NCBI GenBank assembly: GCA_017521285.1
Contig: JAFXDG010000067.1
Location: forward strand, 1-57,491
Length of the DNA stretch: 57,491 nucleotides
Direction of reading: 5' to 3'
Source of the DNA: Bacteroidaceae bacterium
Lineage (GTDB): Bacteria > Bacteroidota > Bacteroidia > Bacteroidales > Bacteroidaceae
The notes below the pieces were generated by a model. It had not been told where the DNA came from. It ran no database searches and saw only the letters and a list, made by a program, of their open reading frames with translations. Shown one piece after another: positions 3,289-36,787 of the stretch. The position numbers and the translations under genes are program-made. Numbering within the stretch: the stretch's first letter is position 1; each line of letters starts with the position of its first letter.

Positions 3289-3774
3289 TCACTTGATTTC
3301 AATGCTACGCACACTCTCGACCTTGGCTTGTGGCTTCATCTTGGGCAACTTGATTTTCAGCACTCCGTCGCTGACCTTGGCACAGATGTTTTCCTTGTCC
3401 ACATCATCGGGGAGGATAAGGGTCTGCTGAAACTTGCTGTACGAAAATTCGCGACGCAGATAGCGTGCCTCCTTCTCTTCGTCGGGCTTCTTTTCCTCCT
3501 TCTTCCCGCCATCTTTTCCGTCGCATCCGCAATCGGTGCATTTGCATTTCTTCTCCATCGTAATCACCAGGTCGTTGTCCTTGTTGATGTGGATGTCGAA
3601 ATCATCCTTACACATACCCGGTGCGGCAACCTCCACCTTGTAGGCTTTTTCGGTCTCCATCACATTGATGGCCGGTGCGGTGGCATTGGCCTTCATCACC
3701 CAATTGGTGTCGAAAAAATCATTGAAAATACTGGGCAACCAGTTCTGTCCGGCATTACGCTTCATAGGCATCAT
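3289..3774 (-). CDS. Small heat-shock protein, Hsp20/alpha-crystallin family
   Basis: An ATP-independent holdase that binds unfolding proteins in the cytoplasm. The 161 residues hold an alpha-crystallin domain (about 35-150), with the usual KAYKVEVAAPG beginning and the GVLKIKLPK strand near the end. The Bacteroidetes-typical segment YLRREFSYSKFQQTL is present. Odd feature: after strand ITMEKK a hydrophilic insert starts with four cysteines at residues 77, 79, 82 and 84 (CKCTDCGC), then a Lys/Glu/Gly-rich stretch. This could bind a metal or act as a redox switch, which is inference. An AAGGAG-type ribosome-binding site precedes the start (complement near 3781-3790). A tiny ORF lies just upstream. 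Confidence 0.93.
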   Translation of the reverse strand: MMPMKRNAGQNWLPSIFNDFFDTNWVMKANATAPAINVMETEKAYKVEVAAPGMCKDDFDIHINKDNDLVITMEKKCKCTDCGCDGKDGGKKEEKKPDEEKEARYLRREFSYSKFQQTLILPDDVDKENICAKVSDGVLKIKLPKMKPQAKVESVRSIEIK

Positions 3775-4688: not shown

Positions 4689-5783
4689 ATGGCATTCGAA
4701 GCATCAAGACGTGACTGGAGCGAGTTGTACGCATTTTTCCGCCTGCTGGCCGATGGCTATGTGTGCGCAGGAAAAGCCGACGGTACTCCCGACGAAGAGA
4801 AGAAACTGACCGTGGCCATGGTGCAACGCGAAGAGCACGACGGCACACGACGATATATTATTGAAGGTGAAAATATCCACATCGCAGGAGAGGGTAGAGA
4901 CGAACGTTTTCCCCGCGAAGATTTTGCTACCGTGGCAATGCTGGTAGGCGACATGCTGAAGCAGGGCGGAGGCGAAGAGGAACTGACCTCGCCCGACGGA
5001 GTGGAGGAGTTTCTCGATGCCGTGGCCATCTACAACCTGGAGGCCAAGACGGACGACCGTACGGACTTCTATGTGGCATTTTGGAGTGTGGATGCCCCGC
5101 TCGTGGGTTTCCGTTCATACTCACGCTTGGGTGGCATGATTCCTCTGCTCGATGGCGGACGTACGGCCAACATCAAGTTTGAACAGACGGGCGTGCGTTT
5201 CCCCAATCCTACGGTAAACAAAATCAATTGGTTGGAGTCGCCCAACGAAGTGCTCGACCGTATGCTGATGATTGAGCGTATGGGCGGAGTGTTGAAGTAC
5301 AACGATGTGGCCGATAAGGTCTTCCGTAGCAATCTGCTGATGATTGACCTTCATTTTCCACGCATTGCGGCTGAGATGTTGCGCACCATGTATTACGAGG
5401 GCATCACACGCATCCCCGAACTGACTGAGCGCATCAAGGAAATCAATCCCCTGAAGATAAAGACCGAACTCATCACCAAGCACCGCTTCTATGAGTTCAA
5501 GGTGAAACAGTTCCTCTTGGCACTGGCCATGGGTATGCGCCCTGCCAAGTTGTACAATGGCACCGACTCGGCCGTGGAGGGATTCATCTACACCGACACA
5601 GAAGGTCGCACCATCTGTTACCACAAGGCCGACCGACAAACGTTTGAAGACTTCCTCTACAACCACACACGCTTGGAGAAAGGGCCGCTCGACAAGGACA
5701 AATATGGCTATCTTGAGCGCGAAAACAACCTCTATTACTTCAAACTCAACCTGAAGGTGGGGTTTGTGAAGAGGAACAAGTGA
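4689..5783 (+). CDS. HpaII-family type II restriction endonuclease-like protein (orphan)
   Basis: A 364-residue protein that I recognise as the HpaII-type restriction endonuclease family (HpaII cuts CCGG). Family-like segments are the N-terminal SRRDWSELYAFFRLLADG, REEHDGTRRYIIEGENI, the core EAKTDDRTDFYVAFW (from residue 118) followed by GFRSYSRLGG (140-149), and the conserved block MLMIERMGGVLKYNDVADK. No DNA methyltransferase is adjacent: neighbours are an AlaX-like gene and a YqeY protein, so protection must come from elsewhere or the enzyme is inactive or repurposed. As I recall the family, a Lys is expected in the GF-x-x-K-S motif where Tyr144 stands here. Start chosen at 4689, downstream of its -7 element. 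Family assignment rests on remembered sequence likeness. Confidence 0.7.
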   Translation: MAFEASRRDWSELYAFFRLLADGYVCAGKADGTPDEEKKLTVAMVQREEHDGTRRYIIEGENIHIAGEGRDERFPREDFATVAMLVGDMLKQGGGEEELTSPDGVEEFLDAVAIYNLEAKTDDRTDFYVAFWSVDAPLVGFRSYSRLGGMIPLLDGGRTANIKFEQTGVRFPNPTVNKINWLESPNEVLDRMLMIERMGGVLKYNDVADKVFRSNLLMIDLHFPRIAAEMLRTMYYEGITRIPELTERIKEINPLKIKTELITKHRFYEFKVKQFLLALAMGMRPAKLYNGTDSAVEGFIYTDTEGRTICYHKADRQTFEDFLYNHTRLEKGPLDKDKYGYLERENNLYYFKLNLKVGFVKRNK

Positions 5784-5822
5784 GGTGGACCCTATCTACT
5801 CCTGTAAAACAACATAATAAAT

Positions 5823-5972
5823 ATGCTTATGATGGACGATTTTGAAGACAGAATGGATGACTATTTTGAATATAAAATTGTCTCCGGCGAACTCGATGAC
5901 GAGGAAAAAGACCGCAAAAAGGAAGACAAGGATAGAAATTCCACAACAGATGAATATAATTCTAAATACTAA
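5823..5972 (+). CDS. Small acidic hypothetical protein (49 aa)
   Basis: A short frame starting MLMMDDFEDRMDDYFEY and rich in Asp, Glu and Lys (charged run ELDDEEKDRKKEDKDR), ending in TAA 20 bases before the yqeY-type start. It lies on the same strand as its neighbours with 39 bases from the endonuclease-like gene, so it may be cotranscribed. Its composition is protein-like and it reads better than the overlapping frame on the other strand. No function is known to me; the charge suggests a soluble, possibly disordered peptide. Confidence 0.5.
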   Translation: MLMMDDFEDRMDDYFEYKIVSGELDDEEKDRKKEDKDRNSTTDEYNSKY

Positions 5973-5992
5973 TAAATACACTTGTAGATAAC

Positions 5993-6442
5993 ATGTTATT
6001 CGATCAAATCAGCAACGACATCAAAGAGGCCATGAAGGCCCGTGACAAAGTGCGCTTGGAGACCTTGCGCAATGTGAAGAAAGTATTCTTGGAGGCAAAG
6101 ACGGCTCCGGGAGCCAACGACGAGCTCTCCGACGAAGCAGCTCTCAAGATAATCCAGAAGTTGGCCAAGCAGGGGCGCGATGCAGCCTCCATCTACGAAG
6201 GCCAGGGACGTGCCGACCTTGCCGCCGACGAGTTGGCACAGGTGTGTGTGCTCGAAGGCTATATGCCCAAACAGATGAGTGCCGAGGAGTTGGCCAACGC
6301 TTTGAAGGAAATCATTGCACAAGTGGGTGCCGCAGGCCCTCAAGACATGGGCAAGGTGATGGGCGTAGCCACCAAGCAATTGGCCGGACGTGCCGAGGGA
6401 CGCGCCATCTCGGCTTGTGTGAAGGAATTGTTGGCAAAGTAA
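5993..6442 (+). CDS. GatB/YqeY domain protein
   Basis: A 149-residue cytoplasmic protein of the YqeY family, related to the C-terminal helical tail domain of the GatB subunit of tRNA amidotransferase. The N-terminal ISNDIKEAMKARDKVRLETLR and the C-terminal MGKVMGVATKQLAGRAEG with AISACVKELL are family hallmarks. Free-standing YqeY proteins are thought to act with tRNA or amidotransferase-like enzymes, but the exact role is not established. A long repeat-built hairpin follows the gene. Confidence 0.93.
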   Translation: MLFDQISNDIKEAMKARDKVRLETLRNVKKVFLEAKTAPGANDELSDEAALKIIQKLAKQGRDAASIYEGQGRADLAADELAQVCVLEGYMPKQMSAEELANALKEIIAQVGAAGPQDMGKVMGVATKQLAGRAEGRAISACVKELLAK

Positions 6443-6450
6443 TATAAAGA

Positions 6451-6569
6451 GGAGTTCAGGAATTTAGGAGTACAGGAGTTCAGATAATAGTCTTGCTATT
6501 ATGGTAAGCTTTATGCAAGCAGAAGTATTGTCTGAACTCCTGAACTTCTGAAACTCCTGAACTCCTAAA
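6451..6569. repeat. GGAGTTCAG-type inverted repeat
   Basis: The left half repeats GGAGTTCAGGA/GGAGTACAGG words; the right half carries their complement (TCTGAACTCCTGAAC and CTCCTGAACTCCT). Together they would form a long imperfect hairpin between the yqeY-type gene and the transporter. The same words occur near 39842 and 54320. It may serve as a transcript end. Confidence 0.7.
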
Positions 6570-6579
6570 AAAGACTTTC

Positions 6580-7479
6580 ATGAACTCCAAACTACTCGGC
6601 CACCTGGCGTGCTTCATTGCATACTCCATCTTTGGCATCAACATCATCGTCTGTAAAGACCTGACGAGCAGCCACCTCATCTCGCCCATGGCGCTCTTCT
6701 GCTTGCGCTCCATCGGTGCCGGGTTGCTCTTTTGGCTCATCTCCCTGTTCACCTCTGGCGAAAAGGTCGAGCGGAAGGATTTTGTGAAGATATTCTTTGC
6801 CTCCGTCCTCGGATTCTTCCTCACACAGATAACCTTCCTGATAGCCATCCCCGACATCACTCCCATGGATTGCTCCATCGTGAGCGCCATCTCGCCCATC
6901 CTGACGATGTTCATTGCCGCCTTTGCCTTGAAAGAACCCATCACTCTGCGCAAAGCGGGCGGTGTGGCCATCAGTTTTTTCGGAATCATCTTCCTCATCC
7001 TCAATAGTGTGAGTGTCTCCGATGCATCGCGTCAGACAAGCCTTGTGGGCATCCTGCTCATCATAGCCAATTGCCTCAGTTTCTCGCTCTACTTGGGGCT
7101 TTTCAAACCCCTCATTGCCCGCTATCCGGTGGTCACGTTCATGAAGTGGATATTTCTTTTCTCTACCCTCATGTCACTTCCCTTTGCCGGTCACGAGATA
7201 GCCACCATCAACTATGCCGCCCTCTCGGGCACTTTCCTCTCCGAGCTTGCTTACCTCATCATCTGCGCCACCTTTGTCACCTATTTCCTCATCCCTGTAG
7301 GACAGAAGCGCATCCGCCCGACCTTGGTCAGCATGTACTCCTACGTGCAACCCATCATCGCCACCACCATCAGCATCTGCCTCGGCATGGACACCCTCGG
7401 TTGGCAAAAGGTGCTTGCCGCCCTCATGGTCTTCGGTGGTGTCATGATGGTAAACTTCAGCCGTAGTGCAAAGAGGTAG
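6580..7479 (+). CDS. EamA/DMT-family transporter
   Basis: A 299-residue inner-membrane protein with about ten hydrophobic helices in two repeats, as in the drug/metabolite transporter EamA family. The first half contains ISPMALFCLRSIGAG and the TPMDCSIVSAISPILTMF helices; the second ends with a VQPIIATTIS helix and GWQKVLAALMVFGGVMMV. Members export amino acids or other metabolites, and the substrate cannot be told here. It follows the repeat hairpin with no visible promoter element and is not clearly in an operon. Confidence 0.9.
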   Translation: MNSKLLGHLACFIAYSIFGINIIVCKDLTSSHLISPMALFCLRSIGAGLLFWLISLFTSGEKVERKDFVKIFFASVLGFFLTQITFLIAIPDITPMDCSIVSAISPILTMFIAAFALKEPITLRKAGGVAISFFGIIFLILNSVSVSDASRQTSLVGILLIIANCLSFSLYLGLFKPLIARYPVVTFMKWIFLFSTLMSLPFAGHEIATINYAALSGTFLSELAYLIICATFVTYFLIPVGQKRIRPTLVSMYSYVQPIIATTISICLGMDTLGWQKVLAALMVFGGVMMVNFSRSAKR

Positions 7480-7636
7480 AATATGAGAAAAATGTCCGAA
7501 TTGCCCCATGAGGGCCAAATATGATGAAATGTGAGGAGAGCATAATGAAACTGATAGAAAAGAACATAAAAGCCAAAACTTTAGTGTATGGATAATCAGA
7601 CGGAAATGCTTTCCAAATGAAAAAACAGAAAAAATA

Positions 7637-8080
7637 TCAGAATCCGATTGCTATTGTAAGAACTTCTTTAGATGAACTTCCAACGTAATTATATATAACT
7701 TTACCGTCTATTTTCATCAAATTTTCTTTTACACCAGCAACTTGAGGAGTTTTTTCTAAAGCGTTTCTAATCGATTTTTCCATCGTTTCCTTTTGGTATT
7801 TCTGCAATTGCTCTATAGTTGCGTAATTTTCATCAATTTCGTATGTATAAACCAAATTCTTTCCATCAAAAAAAACTGAATCCGCACGGGTCATCACATC
7901 TATTTGTTTACCTGCAAGAATTTTATTGGAAATTTCAGCCTCAAATTTCAAAGATTCTTTAGCCTTGTTTACTTCTTCATTTATTTCCGGAGCGGTTGAA
8001 TTCTGTTTTTCTGTATGACCATTTGAGCATGAAGATATTGAAAATAATAATAGCAAGGCAAAAAACAACATTTTTTTCAT
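7637..8080 (-). CDS. Small lipoprotein of unknown function
   Basis: A 147-residue protein with a lipoprotein signal peptide: MKKMLFFALLLLFSISSC, with the lipobox Cys at 18, then a Ser/Asn/Thr/Glu linker. The mature part (about 30-147) is charged and has no domain I recognise. It would be anchored in the outer or inner membrane facing the periplasm. It is more AT-rich than its neighbours, stands alone between a transporter and an amylase, and converges with the transporter gene. It has its own -7 element at 8146-8153. Confidence 0.75.
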   Translation of the reverse strand: MKKMLFFALLLLFSISSCSNGHTEKQNSTAPEINEEVNKAKESLKFEAEISNKILAGKQIDVMTRADSVFFDGKNLVYTYEIDENYATIEQLQKYQKETMEKSIRNALEKTPQVAGVKENLMKIDGKVIYNYVGSSSKEVLTIAIGF

Positions 8081-8145
8081 GAATATAGTCAGCTGTTATA
8101 TACCATCGCTACATCGGTTTTAGTAATAATACTATATTGTCGGTG

Positions 8146-8153
8146 CAAATATA
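8146..8153 (-). promoter_or_regulatory. -7 promoter element for the small lipoprotein gene
   Basis: The complement reads TATATTTG, matching TAnnTTTG, 66 bases before the start. No exact -33 TTTG is visible. The remainder of 8081-8356 shows no gene. Confidence 0.55.
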
Positions 8154-8356
8154 GGGAAATAAAATGGAATATCGTATGCTAATGAGGAAAAATAAAGTCG
8201 TGTTGAAGAAAAGTCTACCTATATCAGTATAAGACACAGGTATCAAGCTTTTAGTCTGAAGGCTAAGAATCTTTTCTACAGAATTAAAGAAAGGACCAAA
8301 AGGAGTTATTCATTTTGGTCCTCTTCCTTGAACTTTAAACTATGAATCTGAAACAA

Positions 8357-10051
8357 TTACAACTTCACCTTCAACACCTTGCCACTGAATCCATCAACGT
8401 GAGTAGAGGCTTGGAGGGTGGGAGAGAGGGCGATGTCCTCCCGCTTGCCCGTCAAAAGGTCGGTGGCTTTGATGGTGTCCTTGGCAGGGATTTCGAGGAA
8501 GTCGAAGGCATGGGCGGGGATGTTGATGCCCACTTCGGCAGGTGCTTCGTCGAAGTTCACCACCACAAGGATAAGCTCCTTCTTCAGCTTGCGGAAGAAG
8601 GTGTATTGGCGATGAGAGTTGAAGCGGGGATTGTCGTAATTGGCATACATGAGGTCGTAGAAAGTGCCTTCGGCCAATGCCTTCTCTGAGGTGCAGAGGT
8701 TGAGCACACGGGTGTAGAAGGCTTGGAGGGCTTTTTCCTCGTCGGTGAGGAGTTTGCCATCGAACTTTCCTCCATTGCGCCAACGACGGATGGTATCTAC
8801 CGTCCAATAGTCGAAGATGGTGGTGCGTCCATCGCGTCCGCTGAATCCCTCTTCGTCCATACCGCGCTCGCCAAACTCTTGTCCGAAATATACCATCACG
8901 GGATTGGCGTTCATGCACGCACTGACAATCATGGCCGGACGGGCTTTCTCGGCATTTCCGGCAAAGAAGTCAGAAGCGATGCGTTGCTCGTCGTGATTCT
9001 CGAGAAAGTTGAGCATGTTCATCTGAATACCTTCAAGGCTTTGCCAACATCCGGTGATGGCAGAGGCCGACTGGCCATAGCAAGTGACGGCCTTCAACGT
9101 GTCGTAGAGGCCCACTTTATCGTAGAGGTAATCGAACTTCCCGCCCCAAATGTAGTTGCGGTATTCGTTCGGATTATACACTTCGGCAATGAAGATGAGG
9201 TCGGGATATTGCTCCTTCACCTGCGGGATGACCCATCCCCAGAAGGCACAAGGCACCATCTCGGCCATGTCGCAACGGAAACCATCGATACCCTTGGAGG
9301 CCCAATAGAGGAGGATGTCGCGCATCTTCATCCATGTATTGGGGATAGGGTCGAAGTGCCAGGTGCGTCCGCCTTGGTAATCCACTCCGTAGTTCAACTT
9401 CACGGTTTCATACCAGTCGTTCACGTCGGGCCAGGCATCGAACCGGTCGTTACCCGTAGCTTTGGCGGGATACTCCATGTAAGGCTCGGTGGCATCTTTA
9501 GCGAGGTCGATGTGTCCCTCCAACTTGGTGCCGGGGATATAGTAGAAATTGTTTTGCGCGGAGAAGGCCCAATCCTTGTTGTCTTCCTCGCCGAGGTCGA
9601 TGACACCTTCGGGTTTGGCATCCGAGGCGTATTGACGCGCCACGTGGTTGGGCACAAAATCCATGATGACCTTCAAGCCTGCCTTGTGGGTGCGCTTCAC
9701 CAGGTTCTCGAACTCCTTCACGCGCTCGGGCACCGAAGTGGCGAGGTCGGGGTCAACGTCGTAGTAATCCTTGATGGCATAGGGCGAACCAGCCTTACCC
9801 TTTACCACGGCGGGGTGGTCGGGACGAATGCCATATCGGCGATAGTCGGTTTGTGTAGCGTGTTCGATGATGCCTGTGTACCAGATGTGTGTGGCACCCA
9901 GGGCCTTGATTTCCTCCAATGCCTTGGTGGTGAAGTCGGCCATGCGTCCGCATCCGTTCACGGCCTTGTCGCCATTGGGCGTGAGGCGTGTATTATTATT
10001 TCCGAAAAGTCGGGTAAAGACTTGGTAAATGACGAATTTATTGTTTTGCAT
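8357..10051 (-). CDS. Alpha-amylase family protein (GH13)
   Basis: A 564-residue glycoside hydrolase of family 13, acting on alpha-glucans or maltooligosaccharides. The TIM-barrel conserved regions are visible: VIMDFVPNHVA (region I), GIDGFRCDMAEMVP (nucleophile Asp in region II), LIFIAEVYNP (acid/base Glu in region III) and NFLENHDEQRIAS (transition-state Asp in region IV). A C-terminal beta domain follows. No signal peptide is present, so the enzyme is probably cytoplasmic, unlike the usual SusG outer-membrane enzyme. It lies upstream of, and separate from, fabD, with a GCGGAT-type hairpin between. Exact specificity is not readable. Confidence 0.93.
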   Translation of the reverse strand: MQNNKFVIYQVFTRLFGNNNTRLTPNGDKAVNGCGRMADFTTKALEEIKALGATHIWYTGIIEHATQTDYRRYGIRPDHPAVVKGKAGSPYAIKDYYDVDPDLATSVPERVKEFENLVKRTHKAGLKVIMDFVPNHVARQYASDAKPEGVIDLGEEDNKDWAFSAQNNFYYIPGTKLEGHIDLAKDATEPYMEYPAKATGNDRFDAWPDVNDWYETVKLNYGVDYQGGRTWHFDPIPNTWMKMRDILLYWASKGIDGFRCDMAEMVPCAFWGWVIPQVKEQYPDLIFIAEVYNPNEYRNYIWGGKFDYLYDKVGLYDTLKAVTCYGQSASAITGCWQSLEGIQMNMLNFLENHDEQRIASDFFAGNAEKARPAMIVSACMNANPVMVYFGQEFGERGMDEEGFSGRDGRTTIFDYWTVDTIRRWRNGGKFDGKLLTDEEKALQAFYTRVLNLCTSEKALAEGTFYDLMYANYDNPRFNSHRQYTFFRKLKKELILVVVNFDEAPAEVGINIPAHAFDFLEIPAKDTIKATDLLTGKREDIALSPTLQASTHVDGFSGKVLKVKL

Positions 10052-35038: not shown

Positions 35039-36613
35039 ATGAGAAAAATTAAATTTGCAGCATCCAACCTGTTGTTGGTAATGATGTGTTTTATGTTTGC
35101 AGCGTGTCCGGAACCAGACCCGGAGCCGGATATTGAAGAAAATTTGGTGAACACCCTAAAAATGTATAAATGGGAGTATTACGATGTCGATGATTTTACG
35201 GATACCGATTACGGTGGTTTTTGGGGCAGTTATACATACAGACTTTATTTTATGGATAATAATGTTGGCTACCATTATTCTGTCATCAAAGACTATGATA
35301 GCAGTTTGGGAAATTCTCAGAAAACATCATTTGACAAATTCACTTACAGTGTATCGGGCAATACGGTGAGATTGAACTTTAAATCCGGACAGGATACCTA
35401 TACTTATAGGAATGGTTTGCTTGTATCAAGTAGTGAAAGTTACTATGAACCTTCGCGGATGACTGAAAGTGACAAAGACTTTGTTAAGAGAAAAGCTCAA
35501 GAATTAGAAGAAGATGAGGAAAATGCGGAAATTTCTTCAAATATAAAAGACTATGTGGACATTACGTATGAATATGTCAAAGAAGACATGTGTATAGAAT
35601 TCACAATTGATACAGAATTGGGCAAGGAATTTCCTGGTAAAACTTTTAAGTATGGAATTGAGTATGGGTATGGAGATTATGAATATACCTCATATTGTGA
35701 AATGGGAGGAAACAGTTCACGGACATTTGTAATGTCAATTCTGTTTGCAGAATATGCCATCTATTACAATTCATATATAGCACTGCGAGAAAAGATAGAT
35801 GACGGAGAGAAACTTGATGACAGTGAACAGGAACTCTTGGAGGATGTGGTGTACTATTTGGAAAAGGATGTAAAAAAGTTCAAAGCTCGTTATTTTGTTG
35901 AGTACAACGGTGAAAGATTTTATTTTAATGCCTATTTCTACAATATCAAAATAGATTTGGACGACAGTTACAATAACTCGAATGGTGGAGGAAATACTAA
36001 TGACGAAAATAACCAAACCACAGGAACTATACAAGGTCACTCCTACGTTGACCTCGGCCTCTCCGTCAAATGGGCGACTTGCAACGTGGGAGCATCCAAG
36101 CCCGAAGATTACGGAGACCATTATGATTGGGGAGAAACAGATACGAAGAGTAAATATAGTGATAAGACTTACAAATGGTGCAAGGGAACAGATGATACGA
36201 TGACCAAGTACTGTACGGATAGTGAATACGGTACAGTGGATAACCGCACTACATTGACCTCTTCCGACGATGTGGCCACCGTGAAATGGGGCAGCAAGTG
36301 GCGTATGCCGACCAAGGAGGAAATGAAAGAACTGGATGAAGATTGCACTTGGACATGGACGACGCAAAACGGAGTGAAAGGAATGAAAGTGACAGGGCCT
36401 AACGGAAACAGTATCTTCTTGCCCGCTGCGGGCTACCGCATCGATACGGACCTTTGCTACCGTGGCTCGGACGGCCGCTACTGGTCTGCTACGTTGAACG
36501 AGAGCAACAGCAACTACGCGTGCAACCTCCGCTTCGGCAGCGGTTACAGCTACTTGTACTATTGGGGCAGCCGTGGCTACTCCGGGTTCTCCGTTCGCCC
36601 TGTCACAGAATAA
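35039..36613 (+). CDS. Lipoprotein with C-terminal FISUMP/C-type-lectin-like domain
   Basis: A 524-residue surface lipoprotein. The signal peptide ends in FAAC (lipid Cys23), followed by a Pro/Glu/Asp linker. Residues about 40-320 form an AT-rich, unrecognised region. From about 331 (GHSYVDLGLSVKWATCNVG) to the end lies a 'Fibrobacter succinogenes major paralogous'-type domain, with WGETDTKSKYS, WRMPTKEEMKEL and GRYWSATLNES. The last 45 residues are rich in Tyr, Ser, Gly and Trp at the positions that vary in retroelement-diversified lectin-fold proteins. The C-terminal part is GC-richer than the N-terminal part, so the gene is a mosaic. No reverse transcriptase is in the window. It is preceded by a structured RNA with terminator. 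Confidence 0.8.
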   Translation: MRKIKFAASNLLLVMMCFMFAACPEPDPEPDIEENLVNTLKMYKWEYYDVDDFTDTDYGGFWGSYTYRLYFMDNNVGYHYSVIKDYDSSLGNSQKTSFDKFTYSVSGNTVRLNFKSGQDTYTYRNGLLVSSSESYYEPSRMTESDKDFVKRKAQELEEDEENAEISSNIKDYVDITYEYVKEDMCIEFTIDTELGKEFPGKTFKYGIEYGYGDYEYTSYCEMGGNSSRTFVMSILFAEYAIYYNSYIALREKIDDGEKLDDSEQELLEDVVYYLEKDVKKFKARYFVEYNGERFYFNAYFYNIKIDLDDSYNNSNGGGNTNDENNQTTGTIQGHSYVDLGLSVKWATCNVGASKPEDYGDHYDWGETDTKSKYSDKTYKWCKGTDDTMTKYCTDSEYGTVDNRTTLTSSDDVATVKWGSKWRMPTKEEMKELDEDCTWTWTTQNGVKGMKVTGPNGNSIFLPAAGYRIDTDLCYRGSDGRYWSATLNESNSNYACNLRFGSGYSYLYYWGSRGYSGFSVRPVTE

Positions 36614-36655
36614 AAGCGTAGCGTATTCGATTCATTTGATTATTTAATTTATTTA

Positions 36656-36682
36656 GAGCGGGCCGATTTATGCCCGCTCTTC
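36656..36682 (+). terminator. Possible terminator after the lipoprotein gene
   Basis: AGAGCGGGC pairs with GCCCGCTCT around a 9-base AT-rich loop. A long T-run does not follow directly, so its efficiency is uncertain. Confidence 0.5.
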
Positions 36683-36787
36683 ACCAATCCTGCGAAGCGG
36701 GTCGAAAATATTTTCCAGAAATATGGCACAGATAAAAGAGATATTACAGAATGAATCAGAATAAGACAATAGAGTGCACAAAATCCA

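What the first reader, a model, noticed from the sequence alone, without database searches (positions are those of the whole stretch)
36030..36613. C-terminal lectin-like domain looks like a retroelement-diversified (DGR) target
Seen: the domain from residue 331 resembles FISUMP/C-type-lectin modules; in the final 45 codons TAC, AGC, GGC, TAT and TGG codons cluster (GSGYSYLYYWGSRGYSG), as expected if AAC/AAT codons of a template had been changed at adenines. Known: several Bacteroides DGR target proteins carry such a domain with the variable region at the C-terminus. Inference: this lipoprotein may be diversified by a template and reverse transcriptase elsewhere in the genome; none is in the window.
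Basis: partly seen in the sequence, partly recalled or inferred. Interest (0 to 1): 0.75.

Follow-up and report, generated by a model that had tools for sequence, protein, structure and literature searches.

The report
Lipoprotein tail rewritten by a retroelement
The tail of this bacterial lipoprotein carries the mutation fingerprint of a diversity-generating retroelement, a known device that rewrites binding sites at chosen codons, although the template and the enzyme that did the writing were not found in the available genome.

Summary
The 524-aa lipoprotein (35039-36613) ends in an Lcl_C/DUF1566-like domain. A second lipoprotein in the same assembly (contig C130) shares the domain but, beyond a similar signal peptide, not the N-terminal region. 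Over 65 aligned C-terminal codons the two genes differ at 34 bases: 18 at codon position 1, 16 at position 2, none at position 3. In the 128 domain codons before them, 29 of 50 differences are at position 3. Of 23 substituted codons, 22 end in C or T, as expected from AAC/AAT template codons. A pair in a second genome of the genus shows the same pattern. Of 11 family relatives with a related reverse transcriptase, 9 gave a template/variable-repeat pair, in cassettes with a MutS_I-like gene. A congener has a decayed cassette, and the window keeps the first 13 codons of its accessory gene.

No template and no reverse transcriptase of this type was found in the 86%-complete own assembly. The only RT there belongs to a hankyphage-like prophage with its own unrelated template. 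The gene is thus a remote or orphaned DGR target, a kind known from Treponema denticola; this is a new member.

The parts
35039..36613 (+). Target gene: 524-aa predicted lipoprotein (signal peptide ending MFAAC, lipidated Cys predicted at residue 23, then an acidic PEPDPEPD stretch)
   Evidence: ORF; the lipobox was read by eye from the translation, no signal-peptide program was run
36029..36610 (+). C-terminal Lcl_C/DUF1566-like domain, a family whose members are common DGR targets
   Evidence: Pfam Lcl_C E 1.3e-7, 32.3 bits, sub-threshold; paralogs in the own genome at C130, C77 and C23
36420..36610 (+). Variable repeat (VR) as inferred; positions that differ from the sister target run from 36440 to 36590
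   Evidence: 34 mismatches to the C130 copy, 18/16/0 at codon positions 1/2/3; ends set by analogy with TR/VR pairs in relatives, of which 4 of 9 end in CAGAA just before the stop as here
36616..36622 (+). GCGTAGC mini-inverted repeat, 2 nt after the stop codon; possible target-recognition hairpin
   Evidence: GCGNAGC within 30 nt of the stop in 11 of 26 genus copies and after 3 of 9 family VRs, after 0 of 9 TRs, the end of one of which (L148) is uncertain; motif chosen after looking, copies share ancestry
36655..36680 (+). 9-bp perfect GC-rich inverted repeat with 8-nt loop (hairpin/cruciform or terminator)
   Evidence: GC-rich stems stand at similar places after several related VRs, but not after the sister target on C130
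36689..36701 (+). Second short inverted repeat CCTGC-GAA-GCGGG
   Evidence: forms such as ACCCGC-GAA-GCGGGT recur after several related VRs, not all
36723..36764 (+). Vestige of the DGR accessory gene: first 13 codons (MAQIKEILQNESE) then a stop
   Evidence: window 36593-36764 is 86% identical to the stretch behind the target in a congener's decayed cassette, where the ORF goes on as a MutS_I-like protein

Best explanation
About the last 64 codons of this lipoprotein are the variable repeat of a diversity-generating retroelement acting in trans. Mutagenic reverse transcription copied an RNA template rich in AAC/AAT codons, with random bases placed opposite adenines. The cDNA replaced the 3' end of this gene and, separately, of a second lipoprotein gene on contig C130. 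Shown: two paralogs whose C-terminal blocks agree at third codon positions and differ only at positions 1 and 2 (apart from one codon insertion), and related template/variable-repeat cassettes in other genera of the family. Inferred: a shared template, lipidation and surface display, a C-type-lectin fold, and ligand binding by the varied residues. Not resolved: whether template and RT are still in this strain (unassembled or unbinned) or have been lost.
For: Window versus C130: 65 aligned codons, mismatches 18/16/0 by codon position, while 128 codons upstream have 13/8/29; the 3' flank 36601-36637 has 1 mismatch in 37. Of 23 substituted codons, 20 end in C, 2 in T and 1 in G. Genome G002 has a pair with VR 14/15/0 against 37/38/55 upstream; zero-position-3 pairs are 2 of 56 within-genome pairs and 0 of 244 between-genome pairs. 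Of 11 family relatives outside the genus with a related RT, 9 gave a TR/VR pair, with 201 mismatches at template adenines and 21 elsewhere (the windows were picked for adenine bias, so that ratio is not independent). Their template peptides carry Asn at many of the columns that vary here (compared by eye). Congener G008 has a target, a MutS_I-like ORF and an RT fragment with IGNLTSQ in one locus, and the window keeps part of the flank behind that target.
Against: No template and no RT of this type in the own assembly, and no template seen in 15 genus genomes by blastn or by one pattern that presumes the template's form. Of the six other VR-bearing genus genomes only G002 is over 90% complete; the five genomes at 94-99% have no VR match. 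One substituted codon (TTG/TGG) does not fit an AAY template codon, and the two copies differ by one codon (GGC, window only). The other 54 of 56 within-genome pairs do not have a position-3-identical VR. The sister target on C130 lacks the GC-rich hairpins found behind the window gene. Strain variation was not tested.
Confidence: 0.94

Rival explanations
1. Fossil target (a sub-case of the best explanation): the DGR wrote both genes in the past, then the template-RT core was lost from this lineage, and the tails are now frozen.
For: No core of this type found in the own assembly, and no template seen in 15 genus genomes. A decayed cassette in G008:C118 and flank vestiges at window 36723-36764, C58:10889-11008 and C130:18446-18535. 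T. denticola isolates without a core keep target genes, read as leftovers (PMC4891356, passages).
Against: No position-3 difference in 65 codons while the same genes have 29 in 128 upstream, so the last writing is recent relative to the paralogs' age. The assembly is 86% complete, and short repeat-bounded mobile contigs can be left out of bins.
Confidence: 0.45
2. Ordinary paralog divergence: gene conversion homogenised the 3' ends and positive selection then changed the ligand-contact residues.
For: Paralogs exist; in known DGR targets and lectin folds such residues are exposed (general knowledge, not tested here).
Against: 34 first- and second-position changes with no third-position change; 11 of 23 substituted codons changed at both positions; 22 of 23 ending in C/T. 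Conversion would also have removed the position 1/2 differences. A pair in a second genome shows the same.
Confidence: 0.03
3. The RT of the hankyphage-like prophage on contig C90, the only RT found in the assembly, rewrites this gene.
For: It is a DGR-type RT (the ten listed phage records are 73-77% identical) in the same genome.
Against: A template-like stretch of its own lies beside it (C90:7152-7262); contig C90 has no adenine-biased match to the window VR and no blastn match to it.
Confidence: 0.02

Closest known systems
DUF1566 (Lcl_C)/Fib_succ_major DGR targets of human gut metagenomes (PMC4159848, passages read)
   Same: Same C-terminal domain family with the VR at the C-terminus; a lipoprotein example is described. 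DUF1566 was the most frequent target domain there (47 proteins).
   Different: That survey reports systems with template and RT; here the target is remote or orphaned and was recognised by comparing two targets.
Treponema denticola TvpA-type multi-target DGR with gains and losses (PMC4891356, abstract and passages)
   Same: Several dispersed targets of one template, most with lipoprotein signals; isolates without the core keep target genes.
   Different: The domain there is FGE-sulfatase type, the host differs, and the core is known in sister isolates; here no core that matches this VR was found in the genus genomes held.
BPP-1 DGR target with downstream hairpin/cruciform (PMC3240598, abstract and passages)
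   Same: VR at the gene end, inverted repeats downstream, adenine-directed codon change.
   Different: Here a mini-repeat stands 2 nt after the stop and a 9-bp stem 41 nt after it with an 8-nt loop, not a GRNA tetraloop; function untested.
Hankyphage (Bacteroides phage p00; the equation of the two names is recalled) DGR
   Same: A relative lies in the same assembly (contig C90), with a template-like stretch and RT of its own.
   Different: Unrelated template; the annotated phage record has one of its two repeats in a tail-fibre gene.

Membership tests
DGR variable repeat (target) | Differences between template and VR fall at template adenines | tested here: inconclusive
   No template held, so not testable directly. 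The indirect test, VR against VR, is met: 0 of 34 differences at codon position 3 and 22 of 23 substituted codons end in C/T; one TTG/TGG and one codon indel do not fit.
DGR variable repeat (target) | VR at the 3' end of the gene, in a C-type-lectin/FGE/DUF1566-like domain | tested here: met
   Pfam Lcl_C E 1.3e-7 but sub-threshold at 32.3 versus 34.9 bits; the differing positions end at 36590 and the inferred VR right before the stop codon.
DGR variable repeat (target) | Several targets in one genome share the non-adenine positions of one template | tested here: met
   C92/C130 and G002 C3/C39, the only 2 zero-position-3 pairs of 300.
DGR variable repeat (target) | Inverted repeat shortly downstream of VR | tested here: met
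   GCGTAGC at 36616-36622 and a 9-bp stem at 36655-36680; role untested, and the C130 sister target keeps only the first of these.
Complete DGR | Template repeat in the genome | tested here: not met
   No template in the own assembly (blastn with E up to 10, pattern with up to 3 mismatches) and none seen in 15 genus genomes; the assembly is 86% complete. Searches used a faulty pattern and do not count.
Complete DGR | DGR-type RT with accessory protein in the genome, serving this target | tested here: not met
   The only RVT_1 match in the assembly is the hankyphage-like RT on C90, which has a template-like stretch of its own. Beside the window gene only the first 13 codons of the accessory gene remain.
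Active DGR target | Population variation confined to VR adenine codons | not testable with these tools
   No reads and no second strain of the species were held.

The most novel reading that the evidence does not exclude
In this Bacteroidaceae genus the DGR core comes and goes as a transient element, while a standing set of dispersed lipoproteins with different N-terminal regions keeps the variable domain, so that an incoming core can rewrite many receptors at once and then disappear, leaving a frozen, strain-specific repertoire.
Probability: 0.25. Interest if true: 0.6.

Novelty: new member of a known kind. Interest (0 to 1): 0.42.

Why it matters
Surveys that look for a reverse transcriptase next to its target miss targets like this one; PMC8144416 says so of its own method (passage). 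The comparison used here, third-codon-position identity with first- and second-position divergence between two paralogs, recognises DGR targets without a template, and suggests that hypervariable lipoproteins are more widespread in gut Bacteroidaceae than RT-anchored searches show. If the core is really absent, the genus is a case for studying how such repertoires are written and then frozen.

Tried and rejected
Template searches. Blastn in the own genome, in the genus and in 399 family genomes (which scored only 2 candidates per genome, so a partial look) and one template pattern in the genus gave no template for this VR. Of the places listed, 30 came as loci and ten further stretches were fetched; the rest were not read. 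Adenine-wildcard scans of loci held: about 0.98 Mb, further loci (one search ended in an error after that part had run): no template. A peptide scan for Asn-rich templates hit 7 templates of other genera and one VR-like stretch, L192.

(degenerate template pattern, genus and family) were built one codon short and do not match the window's own VR, so their negatives are worthless and are not used.

Other RTs of the genus. RVT_1 matches occur in 7 of 15 genomes. Beyond the own genome and G008, I looked closer at G014, G013 and G001. G014, which has no VR match, holds two DGR-type loci: C111, where a template/variable-repeat pair of another kind was found, and C168, an IPVGNLTSQ RT cut by the contig end among phage lysis-type genes. 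Neither gave a template for this VR (its one hit is a low-complexity artefact). G013 has a group-II-like motif and G001 gave no RT motif in that scan. The RTs of G002 and G010 were not classified.

Viral contigs: two protein scans and one DNA pattern gave nothing. Phages: 7 distant matches, 6 of them Prevotella phages; plasmids: 1, Prevotella. PDB by sequence: nothing at E up to 0.1. PHROGs: no match for the window protein at E up to 1e-5. The hankyphage-like RT was considered and rejected as the writer. One search aligned the C130 copy on the wrong strand and is superseded. In one search the L149 plus-strand hits are a simple tandem repeat and were dropped. In some searches the copy G8_C59 was dropped (frame broken), leaving 25 copies.

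Full report
The gene at 35039-36613 encodes 524 residues beginning MRKIKFAASNLLLVMMCFMFAAC, a lipoprotein signal by eye, and ending in a domain that starts near residue 331. Pfam gives Lcl_C over residues 402-522, E 1.3e-7, just under the curated cut-off; that Lcl_C is the present name of DUF1566 is recalled.

The decisive comparison. The window is contig C92 of a 3.38-Mb, 141-contig assembly, 86% complete. The same assembly has a second lipoprotein (C130, 411 aa) with the same C-terminal domain. Its first 23 residues resemble the window's signal peptide (65% identity), but the rest of the N-terminal region gives no significant blastp match. From 36377 to 36438 the two genes differ at 1 of 62 bases, and from 36601 to 36637, across the stop codon, at 1 of 37; between them, in 36439-36600, they differ at 34. 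Those 34 lie at codon positions 1 (18) and 2 (16), never 3, while the 128 domain codons upstream have 13, 8 and 29 (Fisher p = 2.7e-9). Of the 23 substituted codons, 20 end in C, 2 in T and 1 in G, and 11 are changed at both of the first two positions (list). This is what two variable repeats written from one template with AAC/AAT codons look like. Exceptions: TTG/TGG, and one codon (GGC) present only in the window copy.

The pattern repeats, but not everywhere. Among 15 genomes of the genus, 7 (own included) have matches to the VR region. Of 300 pairs among 25 domain copies, exactly two have no third-position difference in the VR block. Both are within-genome pairs: C92/C130, and C3/C39 of genome G002, whose upstream domains have 55 third-position differences in 116 codons (p = 1.5e-6). 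The other 54 within-genome pairs do not show this, so most copies are older or were written from other templates.

The machinery in relatives. In G008, a congener, a target of this family is followed by an ORF with Pfam MutS_I (23.7 bits, over cut-off) and an RT fragment containing IGNLTSQ. No template/variable-repeat pair was found there, so the cassette looks decayed. The window stretch 36593-36764 is 86% identical to the flank behind that target and contains the first 13 codons of the accessory ORF, then a stop. Flank vestiges also lie at C58:10889-11008 and C130:18446-18535. With the RT fragment as query, 12 of 399 family genomes match at E up to 1e-30, 11 of them outside the genus. All 11 loci were fetched, and 9 gave a template/variable-repeat pair, with 201 mismatches at template adenines and 21 elsewhere (the windows were selected for adenine bias). 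By eye, 10 of 11 have the MutS_I-like ORF and 7 of 11 an Avd-like ORF. Only L147 and the G008 ORF were tested with Pfam: L147 gave bAvd E 1.7e-8, MutS_I E 0.013 and, for its target, Lcl_C E 2.4e-7, all under cut-off. Some of these cassettes are themselves imperfect: the L150 RT has an internal TAG, the L148 target frame runs off after the VR, and L151 and L154 targets are cut by contig ends. Template peptides carry Asn at many of the columns that vary in the window (by eye).

What is missing. The only RVT_1 match in the own assembly is on C90. It belongs to a hankyphage-like prophage (RT 73-77% identical in the ten phage records listed) with a template-like stretch of its own at C90:7152-7262 (82% identical to an annotated phage template), and C90 shows no match to the window VR. 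Blastn with the VR (E up to 10) finds C92, C130, a 26-base vestige and short or weaker matches. A template pattern with up to three mismatches finds the C130 copy at 0 mismatches, which serves as positive control, and no template; it would miss a template of another form. Searches used a faulty pattern and are disregarded. One congener, G014, holds two DGR-type loci of other kinds, so DGR cores as such do occur in the genus, but none seen matches this VR.

Target-site features. After the stop codon stand GCGTAGC (36616-36622), a 9-bp stem (36655-36680) and a short stem with a GAA loop (36689-36701). GCGNAGC occurs within 30 nt of the stop in 11 of 26 genus copies, against 0.2% per copy in shuffled flanks, and after 3 of 9 family VRs but 0 of 9 templates, the end of one of which (L148) is uncertain. 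Fifteen of 26 copies lack it, the motif was chosen after looking, and the copies share ancestry. The C130 sister has the mini-repeat but not the GC-rich stems. In BPP-1 an inverted repeat just downstream of VR is required for efficient homing (PMC3240598, abstract and passages); that GCGAAGC forms an unusually stable DNA mini-hairpin is recalled, not checked. These repeats could equally be terminators.

Mechanism. Most likely an RNA template was reverse transcribed with random bases opposite adenines and the cDNA replaced the 3' end of at least two lipoprotein genes, giving them new ligand-binding faces. Writing in trans is inferred from two targets on different contigs.

What is known. DUF1566 was the most frequent DGR target domain in a survey of human microbiomes, which also describes a lipoprotein target with the related Fib_succ_major domain (PMC4159848, passages). 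DGRs with several VRs and one template are described (PMC6642488, passages). Remote targets are stated to be missed by contig-based surveys (PMC8144416, passages). T. denticola isolates without a core keep target genes (PMC4891356, abstract and passages). The listings of searches name neither this protein family nor this genus as a DGR case; that is not exhaustive. Of nine named relatives, four are labelled Bacteroidaceae, from sheep rectum and goat cecum assemblies; the window's own source is not known. The finding is a real, new member of a known kind.

Noticed in passing
L022 (G000:C90) 7152-7262 and 7391-8761: Hankyphage-like DGR in a prophage contig of the same genome: template-like stretch 82% identical to that of PV107408.1, RT 73-77% identical to the ten phage records listed, placed behind head-type genes; the phage tail-fibre gene matches this contig only in the repeat.
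   Followed up: partly
L147 (G299:C13), reverse strand 4967-6910: A DGR target whose N-terminal part is a protein kinase domain (Pfam Pkinase 135 bits) fused to an Lcl_C-like variable domain.
   Followed up: no
L147, L149, L151, L154, L155 (RT ORFs): In 5 of 11 family cassettes the open frame of the RT starts upstream of, and reads in frame through, the template repeat; Pfam even finds weak Lcl_C in the L147 RT ORF.
   Followed up: no
L084 (G008:C118) 3418-3699 and 7705-8076: The decayed DGR locus is flanked by a partial copy of a gene start (MNNEL/MNNEQ..IPLDFNLPKDKTENIIKVIG, FtsZ-like by recall) that is repeated behind it, as if an insertion had duplicated the gene start.
   Followed up: no
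L048 (G007:C49:11453-11686 and surroundings): A target copy in a congener with two in-frame stops in its domain, one of them in the variable block: a broken target.
   Followed up: no
L088 (G014:C111) and L089 (G014:C168): Another genome of the genus holds an unrelated template/variable-repeat pair beside an RT, and an IPVGNLTSQ-type RT at the end of a 4.7-kb contig with amidase-like and other phage-type genes (by eye).
   Followed up: partly
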